The notes under the pieces are model-generated. The model was given only the letters and a program-made list of their open reading frames with translations, did not search any database and was not told where the DNA came from. A program made the translations under genes and the position numbers. 64,000 nt of DNA, taken from Candidatus Aramenus sulfurataquae. GTDB taxonomy: Archaea > Thermoproteota > Thermoprotei_A > Sulfolobales > Sulfolobaceae. The stretch's first letter is position 1. Each line of letters opens with the position of its first letter. The stretch covers positions 124,001 to 188,000 of the forward strand of contig ASRH01000004.1 in the NCBI GenBank assembly GCA_000565255.1, given 5' to 3'. Shown piece after piece: positions 4,603 through 61,699 of the stretch.

Positions 4603-5601
4603 TTACAACCTAAAAGTCACGACGCTTTTCTTTTTCTCAGCCTTCCAGTCCACATTTACCGGCGGTAGTCCCTTCAAGCTCCTCAAGTAGTTATAAGCAC
4701 TTAGGGCAGCCTTCACGCCTTCAGCCGACGCCACTATAGCCTGCTTATAAGGAGTCTGAGTGACGTCACCTGCAGCAAATACCCCTTCAACTGACGTTCT
4801 ACCTAGCTCGTCCACTATTATCTCCCCTTTTTCGTTTAGCTTAACGAAGCCTTTTAAGAACTCTGTCCTAAGCTCGTATCCCATCTCTATTATAACTCCG
4901 TCAACTTTCAACTCCTTAGTCTCGTGCGTCTTCAAGTTTTCTATTATTATAGCCTCAACCTTGTTCTCTCCTTTGATACCCTTTACGATGTAGCCTAGGT
5001 ACAGCTCGACGTTTTTCCTCTTGGCTACGCTGTCTACTACTTCCGGTTCACCGACCAGTTGCGGCGTCCTGGAAATATAGTAGGCTGGCTTAGAATATCT
5101 TGATAGCAACTCTATTGCCTCAAGTCCTGGCTCTCCTTCGCCTACCACTGCTGCGGGCACGTCTTTGAAGAAGGCAGCGTCGCAGATGGCGCAATAGGAA
5201 ACCCCCTTTCCTTTAAGTTCGCTTTCTCCAGGGACGTTAAGCTCCCTTGGCGACTTACCAAAGGCCAGGATCACTGCCCTAGCCTTGTAGTCACCCTTTA
5301 TTCCCTTAAGGATAAAATAATCACTTTCCTTTGATATCGCCCTGATTTCCTCGTCATAGATAAACTTAGCGCCAAACTTCTTGGCTTGGCTTTCCACTTT
5401 TGTTGCTAACCCTATGCCCGTATCAGCGTTTATGGCCGGGTAGTTCTCTATTAACTGTGTAAGGTTAAGCTGACCTCCTAGATCCTTGGAGACTACTAGG
5501 GTAGAGAGCTTCTGCCTACTGGTGTAAAGGGCAGCGCTTAGTCCTGCAATGCCAGCGCCTACAATTATAACGTCGTACATCTCTTCATACGAATTGCTCA
5601 T
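4603..5601 (-). CDS. trxB: Thioredoxin reductase (NADPH/FAD)
   Basis: The 332-residue protein has the FAD motif GAGIAG at residues 15-20, the redox pair CAIC at 137-140, the pyridine-nucleotide motif GEGEPG at 154-159, and the FAD-tail motif 'AAGDVT' near the C-terminus. This is the complete low-molecular-weight thioredoxin reductase plan. It would reduce thioredoxin-like partners such as the protein disulfide oxidoreductase encoded at 19122-19823. The start ATG at 5601 is followed in frame by a second Met at residue 8; both are possible starts. It ends 3 bases from the convergent SQR-like gene. Confidence 0.9.
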
Positions 5602-5989
5602 GGATTACACCCTCTCAAAACGCAGTTAAAAGTTTATTTTTAAAATCTAATAAATAGATATCAAATAGTGTTTTGTTCTCATATTTCGTTAACATATGAA
5701 ATTTTCAGCAAATACTTAGCGTATGTATAGCCTTAAATAACTTTTTTGTGAGCGATAAAGCTAGTAAAGGTATCCCATTGTCGAAATAGAGAAGTAGAGC
5801 TAGTAAGAGAGAAGACCCGATTATAAGTACGGCGATTACATCATAAACACGAGGAAATGTCGGTATTATGCGAATGAACTAGAAAACGTGGACGGTAAGG
5901 TGAAGGAGACTTACGCCGGTCATTAATTTACATAGTCTAGACTACCTAAAATTGGGAAAAACGGGAGAACTACAGGTTCTTTCTCACAG
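5602..5989. other. 388-bp gene-free region between trxB and tRNA-Gly
   Basis: No intact gene is visible. The half nearest trxB is A/T-rich and should hold the trxB promoter. The other half (5873-5989) is related to the region downstream of tRNA-Val at 44848-44966. A plus-strand frame ending at a stop near 5921-5923 reads like the last residues of a protein, but it is closed by stops on both sides. Confidence 0.4.
5873..5989. repeat. tRNA 3'-flank repeat, copy A
   Basis: This roughly 117-bp segment aligns with copy B at 44848-44966. Shared blocks include GAGACTTACG (5906-5915), an ATTAAT block, the palindromic GTCTAGAC (5935-5942) and AACGGGAG just before the tRNA. Each copy lies directly 3' of a minus-strand tRNA gene, and the GAGACTTACG block is 84 bases (A) or 86 bases (B) from the tRNA end. 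The matching spacing suggests that it was duplicated together with the tRNA, or is a conserved co-transcribed element. Confidence 0.5.
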
Positions 5990-6063
5990 TGCGACCGCCG
6001 GGATTTGAACCCGGGATCACTGGCTTGGGAGGCCAGCGTCCTACCAGGCTAGACTACGGCCGC
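5990..6063 (-). tRNA. tRNA-Gly (CCC)
   Basis: The minus strand folds as a standard cloverleaf with acceptor GCGGCCG/CGGTCGC, anticodon stem CTGGC/GCCAG around the loop CTCCCAA, and a T-arm with TTCAAAT. The anticodon is CCC and the discriminator is A. No intron and no encoded CCA are seen. Confidence 0.93.
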
Positions 6064-6097
6064 AATACTAATTTACTTAGAAGGGCTAAAAAACTTA

Positions 6098-6148
6098 ATG
6101 ATGAGAAGAGGGTCGAATGACCTCGGTGATTGGCGCTGGAAATTCTGA
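6098..6148 (+). ncRNA. Candidate C/D-box guide sRNA (best geometry in the window)
   Basis: The order is C box ATGATGA (6098-6104), 12-nt guide, D' ATGA (6117-6120), 5-nt spacer, C' GTGATTG (6126-6132), 12-nt guide, D box CTGA (6145-6148). Both guides are exactly 12 nt, the strict spacing of archaeal C/D sRNPs, for a total of 51 nt. D' and C' each deviate by one or two bases from consensus, as is common. It lies in the free space between divergent tRNA-Gly and the mutase gene, with an A/T-rich promoter-like stretch (about 6069-6080) upstream. Guides would direct 2'-O-methylation at the fifth paired base before each D/D' box; targets were not identified. Confidence 0.5.
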
Positions 6149-6169
6149 ACGTTTTTGGTCCTGTTTAGG

Positions 6170-6198: not shown

Positions 6199-7566
6199 AT
6201 GGGTAAGTTATTTGGTACAGACGGAGTCAGGGGAGTTATAAACAGGGAATTAACCCCGGACCTAGCGCTGAAACTGGGAAAGGCCATAGGTACCTTCTTC
6301 GGAAAGGGGTCTACTATCTTACTCGGAAGGGACGCTAGGGCCGGAGGAGATATGTTTGCTAGGGCCGTGGAGAGCGGGTTAATGAGCGCAGGTGTCAAGG
6401 TTTACGAGGGTGGATTTGCGCCAACTCCAGCCCTACAGTACGCGGTGAAAACGCTGGGCTATGACGCGGGCGTCATAATAACAGCTAGTCACAACCCAGC
6501 TCATTACAACGGCATTAAGGTAATAGATAAGGACGGCGTTGAAGTGTCTAGAGAGAAGGAAAAGGTAATAGAGGACATTTACTTTTTAGAGAAGTTCTCA
6601 GCTGTCGAATGGACCTATCTGACTTATGACGTCAAAAGAGAGGACAGGGTAATAGACACGTACGTTAAGGGCATCTTGTCCCACGTTGACGTCGAAAAGG
6701 TGAGGAAAAAGGGTTACAAGGTACTTATAGACGGCGCTAATAGCGTAGGTTCTATAACTACTCCGATTATTGCAAGGGAACTTGGCTGTAAAATAAACGC
6801 GGTAAACACCAACCTAGACCCTCTGTTCCCGGCAAGAACTCCTGAGCCTACTATGGACAGCTTGAAGGAGACGGCTAAGATAGCGTCTGACTTAGGAGTG
6901 GACCTGGGAGTGGCCCACGATGGCGATGCAGATAGGGCTATATTCATCGACTCTAAGGGAAGAGTGCAGTGGGGAGACAGGAGCGGAGCCCTTCTGTCGT
7001 ATTGGGCGTCAACTAAGGAGAGCGGGTTCCCTAGGAGAATATTCACGGCAGTGTCTAGTTCCATCTTAGTAGAGGAGTTCCTCTCAAAGTTTAACATCGA
7101 GGTGAAGTGGACGAAGGTGGGTAGTGTGGACATAGCCCACGCCCTTATGGAGGAAAAGGGAATAGCCGGATTCGAGGAGAACGGCGGTTTCATATTCCCT
7201 GCACACCAGTACGTCAGGGACGGAGCCATGAGCTTTGCCCTAATGTTAGAGTACATGGCAAGCGAAAACGCTACCTCTGCCCAGCTCTTCGATTCCCTTC
7301 CTCAGTATTATCCAGTGAAGACAAAGGTAGAAATAAAGCCCTCCACAGATGTACAGAGGATCTATGAGGAGCTTAAGGCCACCTACGGCAACAAAGGGGA
7401 AATCATAGCAGTTGATGGCGTGAAAATAGTGACAAAGGATTACTGGTTCCTAGTTAGGAAAAGCGGTACTGAGCCAATAATAAGGATAATGATTGAGGCA
7501 AAGGATCAAAATCTGGCAAACTCTTTAGCCTCAGAGCTGGTTAAGTTTGTGGGGAGTTTAACTTGA
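6199..7566 (+). CDS. glmM: Phosphoglucosamine mutase / phosphomannomutase
   Basis: This alpha-D-phosphohexomutase of 455 residues shows all four motifs of the family: the phosphoserine loop TASHNP (residues 95-100, Ser97), the metal loop DGDADR, the sugar-selecting ENGGF, and the C-terminal phosphate-binding RKSGTEP. It interconverts hexose or hexosamine 6- and 1-phosphates for glycan precursors. Archaeal homologues with this 'FGTDGVRG' N-terminus act on glucosamine phosphate and often also on mannose or glucose phosphate, so the exact substrate is inferred. It is leaderless and overlaps the next gene by 4 bases. Confidence 0.85.
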
Positions 7567-42383: not shown

Positions 42384-42492
42384 GCTGGGGTGGCCGAGCG
42401 GTCTAAGGCGGCACTGCCCATCGGTAGCGCTAAGGGCCGCAGTGGGTTTGCAGAAACCCGTTATCTCGCGGGTTCGAATCCCGCCCCCAGCT
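42384..42492 (+). tRNA. Intron-containing tRNA, probably tRNA-Cys (GCA)
   Basis: Acceptor GCTGGGG/CCCCAGC (42384-42390 with 42485-42491), D-arm with GCC/GGC and a perfect T-arm (GCGGG/CCCGC around TTCGAAT) are certain. The gene is 109 bases long. If 42411-42443 is removed, a 76-nt tRNA remains whose anticodon arm is GGGTT-TGCAGA-AACCC with anticodon GCA (42450-42452). The discriminator at 42492 is T, the base typical of tRNA-Cys and rare elsewhere. The removed 33 bases have self-complementary ends (ACTGC/GCAGT). The remaining anticodon loop is one base short and the variable loop long, so exact splice sites and isotype are not settled; a class-II tRNA is the alternative. Confidence 0.65.

Positions 42493-61606: not shown

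Positions 61607-61699
<93 letters not shown>

What the first reader, a model, noticed from the sequence alone, without database searches (positions are those of the whole stretch)
6098..6148. Unannotated C/D-box sRNA with two exact 12-nt guides
ATGATGA, 12 nt, ATGA, 5 nt, GTGATTG, 12 nt, CTGA: this is the strict archaeal C/D sRNP spacing in a 51-nt gene-free segment.
Basis: partly seen in the sequence, partly recalled or inferred. Interest (0 to 1): 0.6.

Follow-up and report, generated by a model that had tools for sequence, protein, structure and literature searches.

The report
Archaeal sR20 rRNA-methylation guide RNA
This short stretch is a real small-RNA gene, an already catalogued archaeal guide RNA (sR20) that most likely directs methyl groups onto two nearby spots of the large ribosomal RNA, so it is an ordinary gene whose target site is of moderate interest.

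Summary
Window 6098-6148 (+) reads ATGATGA, 12 nt, ATGA, 5 nt, GTGATTG, 12 nt, CTGA. A strict regular expression finds only this copy in 64 kb and none in 200 order-1 Markov sequences. It matches Rfam RF01140 (sR20, C/D box) over 6094-6150 at 50.5 bits, gathering score 44. In an order-wide sample 63 of 147 genomes match, 22 of them in the window's own family; 17 of 147 pass the cut-off. In those 22 the D' guide core AGAGGGTC is kept in 21 and the D core GCTGGAAA in 22. The best-supported mechanism is a double guide on 23S rRNA: D' at the equivalent of E. coli C1920 (the bacterial TlyA site), D 36 nt downstream at the equivalent of U1956. Both are present in 7 of 7 full-length 23S rRNAs tested; 3 of 20000 shuffled core pairs do as well. 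Caveats: in this genome alone the pairing is weak (77 of 2000 shuffles do as well), the D duplex has a conserved A x G mismatch, and no expression or methylation data were available. An ordinary member of a known kind.

The parts
6094..6150 (+). sR20 C/D-box sRNA (Rfam RF01140), whole match
   Evidence: cmscan 50.5 bits, gathering 44
6098..6104 (+). C box ATGATGA
   Evidence: sequence; TGATGA invariant in the 22 aligned family homologues
6105..6116 (+). D' guide GAAGAGGGTCGA; predicted to pair with own 23S positions 2054-2062 and to methylate C2057 (E. coli C1920 equivalent)
6117..6120 (+). D' box ATGA
   Evidence: sequence
6121..6125 (+). 5-nt D'-C' spacer
   Evidence: sequence; length varies among homologues
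6126..6132 (+). C' box GTGATTG (TGA invariant in the 22 aligned homologues)
6133..6144 (+). D guide GCGCTGGAAATT; predicted to pair around own 23S position U2093 (E. coli U1956 equivalent), with a mismatch at the third base upstream of the D box
6145..6148 (+). D box CTGA, invariant in the 22 aligned homologues
5989..6063 (-). Neighbouring divergent tRNA-Gly(CCC) gene, 30 nt from the Rfam match; a context feature, not part of the sRNA. tRNA-Gly neighbours are also common beside sR20 in relatives

Best explanation
This is the gene of the C/D-box methylation guide sR20. SHOWN: the box anatomy, membership of the Rfam family, and conservation of both guide cores. INFERRED from established C/D biology: the RNA forms two kink-turns from its C/D and C'/D' boxes, binds L7Ae, Nop5 and fibrillarin, and pairs its guides with 23S rRNA; fibrillarin then methylates the ribose opposite the fifth guide base upstream of each D box. 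PREDICTED sites: own 23S C2057 (E. coli C1920 equivalent, helix 69) from the D' guide and U2093 (E. coli U1956 equivalent) from the D guide. The D' site is the better supported; my estimate is about 0.8 for D' and 0.6 for D. The confidence below is for the gene and its general mechanism.
For: Rfam hit above the gathering score. One copy in the own genome; 63 of 147 sampled genomes of the order match, 22 of them in the own family. Guide cores are invariant or nearly so while spacer and flanks vary. The D' core forms 8 Watson-Crick pairs at the homologous 23S site in 15 of 17 genomes where guide and site could both be read. D guide positions 4-11 pair (one U.G) at the homologous site in 15 of 15. 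The sites are 36 nt apart in 14 of 14 genomes in which both were read without an intron between them; PMC4644070 (passages) calls sRNAs with two targets within 100 nt double guides. Both cores within 100 nt in all of 7 full-length 23S rRNAs was matched by 3 of 20000 shuffled core pairs; singly, 52 of 4000 shuffled D' cores and 225 of 4000 shuffled D cores hit all 7. Neither core pattern matches 16S in 8 of 8 genomes. The D guide has no run above 7 in 43 tRNAs with 17 spliced forms, 2 short tRNA-like hits, 5S (the partial Rfam match), SRP and RNase P RNA of the own genome.
Against: No expression or methylation data. In this genome alone the joint pairing is weak: 77 of 2000 shuffled guide pairs score at least as well. 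The D guide has an A x G mismatch at position 3 in 15 of 15 readable genomes, although that A is invariant in the 22 aligned homologues; the 9-base D core including position 3 has no 23S match in 9 of 10 genomes (the one match, G032 position 136, is elsewhere). The D' core pattern has a second 23S match in 2 of 10 genomes (G032, G136). G022 has lost D' core base C3 and G004's candidate has both guides different. RNase P RNA offers the D' guide an equally long run in the own genome (9, 8 Watson-Crick), and the upstream flank of the own rRNA operon a 10-base run with 7 Watson-Crick. Haloarcula marismortui is listed with eight modified 23S positions not including the 1920 equivalent (PMC2584109, passages).
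Confidence: 0.85

Rival explanations
1. It is sR20, but only the D' guide acts on 23S. The D guide serves another RNA (a tRNA of some species, an mRNA or an unknown RNA) or only helps anchor and fold the rRNA.
For: The D-guide A at position 3, invariant in 22 homologues, is mismatched to 23S in 15 of 15 readable genomes. PMC4644070 (passages) reports guides with no rRNA match and proposes chaperone roles.
Against: No better D target among 43 tRNAs, 5S, SRP or RNase P RNA of the own genome, nor by core pattern in 16S of 8 genomes. The D site lies 36 nt from the D' site in 14 of 14 genomes read without an intron between. mRNAs were not scanned.
Confidence: 0.25
2. The D' guide targets RNase P RNA instead of, or as well as, 23S rRNA.
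For: 9-base run with 8 Watson-Crick pairs in the own RNase P RNA.
Against: Examined in one genome only; the run uses guide bases outside the invariant core, while the 23S site pairs with the whole 8-base core in 15 of 17 genomes.
Confidence: 0.05
3. Chance motif with no transcript.
For: No transcript data were available; no bacterial-type promoter or terminator was found (a scan that does not cover archaeal promoters).
Against: Rfam match, family-wide conservation, 0 of 200 Markov sequences carry the motif.
Confidence: 0.02

Closest known systems
Rfam RF01140 sR20 (C/D-box sRNA; of 14 control genomes Sulfolobus acidocaldarius and Methanocaldococcus jannaschii ring, one of the two over the cut-off)
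   Same: Full-length match 1-56 of 56, same boxes; same guide cores as its family relatives
   Different: One extra base in the D'-C' region relative to the model; the D' guide base facing own 23S position 2063 is not paired here
TlyA (bacterial 2'-O-methyltransferase for 23S C1920; PMC5778110, passages)
   Same: The predicted product is the same ribose methyl at the equivalent nucleotide (the paper's AA[Cm]GGU fragment aligns with archaeal GACCCU)
   Different: TlyA is a stand-alone protein enzyme; here an RNA guide plus fibrillarin would do it. An analogy of outcome, not membership. Whether this genome also encodes a TlyA-like enzyme was not tested
Double-guide archaeal C/D sRNAs targeting helices 68-71 (PMC4644070, sections 7 and 9 read)
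   Same: Two guides aimed at two nearby sites in the domain IV interface region, described there as a methylation hotspot
   Different: In the main text the term sR20 was found only as the start of another species' number (sR206), and 1920 and 1956 not at all; its supplementary site lists could not be opened

Membership tests
Archaeal C/D-box sRNA, Rfam RF01140 (sR20) | Covariance-model score above the curated gathering score | tested here: met
   50.5 against 44 bits
Archaeal C/D-box sRNA, Rfam RF01140 (sR20) | C, D', C' and D boxes in order | tested here: met
   ATGATGA / ATGA / GTGATTG / CTGA
Archaeal C/D-box sRNA, Rfam RF01140 (sR20) | Two guides of about 10-12 nt, both with the family's cores | tested here: met
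   12 nt each; AGAGGGTC and GCTGGAAA
Archaeal C/D-box sRNA, Rfam RF01140 (sR20) | Conserved complementarity to a stable RNA covering the fifth base upstream of the D or D' box | tested here: met
   23S D' site in 15 of 17 and D site in 15 of 15 readable genomes; 3 of 20000 shuffled controls
Archaeal C/D-box sRNA, Rfam RF01140 (sR20) | Nine consecutive Watson-Crick pairs (target-prediction rule of PMC4644070, passages); a threshold for calling targets, not a definition of the family | tested here: not met
   Own genome: 8 Watson-Crick plus 1 G.U (D') and 7 plus 2 (D). G032, G136, G084, G049, G137 and G095 reach 9 for D'. The paper relaxes the rule for some double guides
Archaeal C/D-box sRNA, Rfam RF01140 (sR20) | Transcript bound by L7Ae, Nop5 and fibrillarin | not testable with these tools
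   needs RNA and protein experiments
Functional counterpart of TlyA (Cm at 23S C1920) | 2'-O-methyl at the C1920 equivalent | not testable with these tools
   predicted only; needs RiboMeth-seq or mass spectrometry

The most novel reading that the evidence does not exclude
In Sulfolobaceae an RNA-guided system (sR20 plus fibrillarin) makes the same helix-69 ribose methylation (C1920 equivalent) that some bacteria make with the protein enzyme TlyA: independent solutions to modifying one intersubunit-bridge nucleotide. A second methyl at the U1956 equivalent would be installed by the same RNA.
Probability: 0.5. Interest if true: 0.45.

Novelty: new member of a known kind. Interest (0 to 1): 0.22.

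Why it matters
The gene itself is ordinary: one orthologue of a curated guide-RNA family. The modest extra is a concrete, testable target pair in helix 69 and just downstream of it. If the D' prediction is right, archaea and bacteria reach the same methylated nucleotide of an intersubunit bridge by an RNA guide and by a protein enzyme respectively.

Tried and rejected
tRNA targets: the D' guide has a 9-base run with 7 Watson-Crick pairs in L189 (ARAGORN calls it tRNA-Pyl(cta), doubtful) and an 8-base run with 5 Watson-Crick in tRNA-Gly(UCC); the D guide has at most 7. Rejected as weaker than 23S. A first tRNA scan included flanks and both strands, and a second read 15 tRNA loci without correcting their strand, so its hits in L189 and L191 were antisense; both were superseded.

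Perfect 12-bp targets in 16S or 23S: none. The own rRNA operon with its flanks: for the D' guide many runs of 8-9 and one of 10 (7 Watson-Crick, upstream flank); for the D guide two runs of 9, one of them the 23S site, and three of 8. Conservation of the non-23S sites was not tested, so they were not adopted.

Gene order: of 30 sR20 loci (up to about 1.5 kb either side), the 6199 ORF and the 4603-5601 ORF were found in 2, both of the own genus, so operon-based reasoning was dropped.

Rows dropped before counts: G141 was left out because its 23S is partial; G147 and G154 have 23S but no sR20 locus was fetched for them. In the 15 of 17 and 15 of 15 counts, genomes whose site was not readable or was split (G125 for D'; G004, G137, G095 for D) were not counted; 12 of 22 genomes gave no 23S match, and several 23S loci carry runs of N.

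Literature: eight answered paper searches showed no statement of these sR20 targets in their listings or in the passages read. 'sR20' in PMC9014305 is a Thermococcus kodakarensis number (passages); I did not test whether it is related.

Full report
Observation. A strict regular expression for this arrangement matches once in 64 kb over both strands and in 0 of 200 order-1 Markov sequences of the same length. The segment lies between a divergent tRNA-Gly(CCC) gene (5989-6063, minus) and a 455-aa ORF that starts at 6199, which I take from its sequence to be a phosphoglucomutase/phosphoglucosamine-mutase-type protein (inference, no family search made).

Identity. Rfam release 15 matches 6094-6150 (+) to RF01140, sR20, a C/D-box sRNA, over the whole model (50.5 bits; gathering score 44; E = 7.6e-8 in the window). 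The own genome holds one copy. Of 147 genomes sampled from the order, 63 match at E <= 0.001 and 17 pass the cut-off; 22 of the 63 belong to the window's own family. No family member appears among the 20 non-matching rows shown, but 64 further non-matching rows were not listed, and that search used stricter filters that lose weak matches. Of 14 control genomes Sulfolobus acidocaldarius and Methanocaldococcus jannaschii ring, one of the two over the cut-off.

Conservation. In an alignment of the 22 family members the C-box core TGATGA, the D box CTGA, the C' TGA and the guide bases AGAGGGT and CGCTGGAAA are invariant, while the D'-C' spacer and flanks vary. AGAGGGTC is present in 21 of 22 and GCTGGAAA in 22 of 22; among the 8 more distant loci fetched the counts are 7 and 6. 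The exception in the family is G022, whose D' core has lost its last base. G004, more distant, differs in both guides. L032 (G104) has a C in place of the D-guide U that forms a U.G pair in the family; its 23S site was not found, so whether this is compensatory is open.

Targets. No perfect 12-bp target exists in the own 16S or 23S. Requiring pairing at the fifth base upstream of the D box, the best 23S sites are own positions 2053-2064 for the D' guide (9-base run, 8 Watson-Crick; predicted Cm2057) and 2089-2100 for the D guide (9-base run, 7 Watson-Crick; predicted Um2093), 36 nt apart. In this genome alone that is weak: 77 of 2000 shuffled guide pairs score as well or better. Across genomes it is stronger: both cores pair within 100 nt in all of 7 full-length 23S rRNAs, which 3 of 20000 shuffled core pairs achieve; singly, 52 of 4000 shuffled D' cores and 225 of 4000 shuffled D cores hit all 7. 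Counting every genome in which guide and site are both readable, the D' core forms 8 Watson-Crick pairs in 15 of 17, and D positions 4-11 pair with one U.G in 15 of 15. Neither core pattern occurs in 16S of 8 of 8 genomes; the D' pattern has a second 23S match in 2 of 10, and the 9-base D pattern, which includes the mismatched position 3, matches 23S in 1 of 10, at another place. In 43 tRNAs with 17 spliced forms, 2 short tRNA-like hits, 5S (partial match), SRP and RNase P RNA of the own genome the D guide has no run above 7; the D' guide has one 9-base run with 8 Watson-Crick pairs in RNase P RNA.

Position names. E. coli rrlA carries AACGGU with the C at index 1921 of that 2905-base gene. 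The Campylobacter TlyA paper gives the methylated fragment as AA[Cm]GGU and names it C1920 (PMC5778110, passages), so the archaeal GA[C]CCU is its equivalent; the index differs by one from the usual numbering. The D site lies 36 nt downstream in both, that is U1956. TlyA papers seen as passages say that type I TlyA methylates C1920 (PMC12805891; PMC5778110) and that it lies at intersubunit bridge B2a (PMC5778110). PMC4644070 (sections 7 and 9 read; other passages) calls helices 68, 69 and 71 methylation hotspots. Haloarcula marismortui is reported with eight modified 23S positions not including this one (PMC2584109, passages), so the site is not general in archaea.

Mechanism. By established C/D biology (described in PMC4644070, passages) the RNA would bind L7Ae, Nop5 and fibrillarin, and fibrillarin would methylate the base opposite the fifth guide nucleotide. 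The anatomy and conservation are shown here; expression, protein binding and methylation are inferred. Against the D half of the model stands the A x G mismatch at position 3, present in 15 of 15 readable genomes. The guide base there is invariant, so something other than this duplex may constrain it.

Verdict. The predicted C1920-equivalent target is the one part that may interest specialists. I found no statement of it in the papers searched, but the supplement most likely to hold it could not be opened.

Noticed in passing
window 5989-6063 and homologous loci L001, L004-L016, L018, L019, L022, L023, L025, L027, L029, L030: sR20 sits beside a tRNA-Gly gene in 13 of 22 family loci (12 CCC, 1 TCC), plus 3 with an unnamed tRNA call (ccca/ccaa) at the same place; 6 have none within the locus. 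Of the 16, 9 are divergent and 7 on the same strand, so the association survives inversions.
   Followed up: partly
G066:C17:360315-360369 and 365035-365089 (L204, L022): One genome has two sR20 copies 4.7 kb apart, each with a tRNA-Gly(CCC) 122 nt upstream: apparently a duplicated segment.
   Followed up: partly
L223 (G004), L224 (G137), L225 (G095): Insertions, probably 23S rRNA introns, sit next to the sR20 target sites: before CTCTGACCC (G137, G095), after CTCTTAA (G137) and at the AAGUUCC stretch (all three). In G137 the start of the insertion (GGGAGGGTC) could pair with the D' target itself, so splicing and guide binding may compete.
   Followed up: partly
window 42384-42492 (+): A long tRNA-like gene found by Rfam with permissive filters (39.2 bits) and in the genome search but absent from the default Rfam and ARAGORN scans of the window; cut out, ARAGORN calls it tRNA-Ala(cgc) with an intron, identity doubtful.
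   Followed up: no
window 61607-61699 (-): tRNA reported with a four-base anticodon (ttta), possibly an intron-containing tRNA misread by ARAGORN.
   Followed up: no
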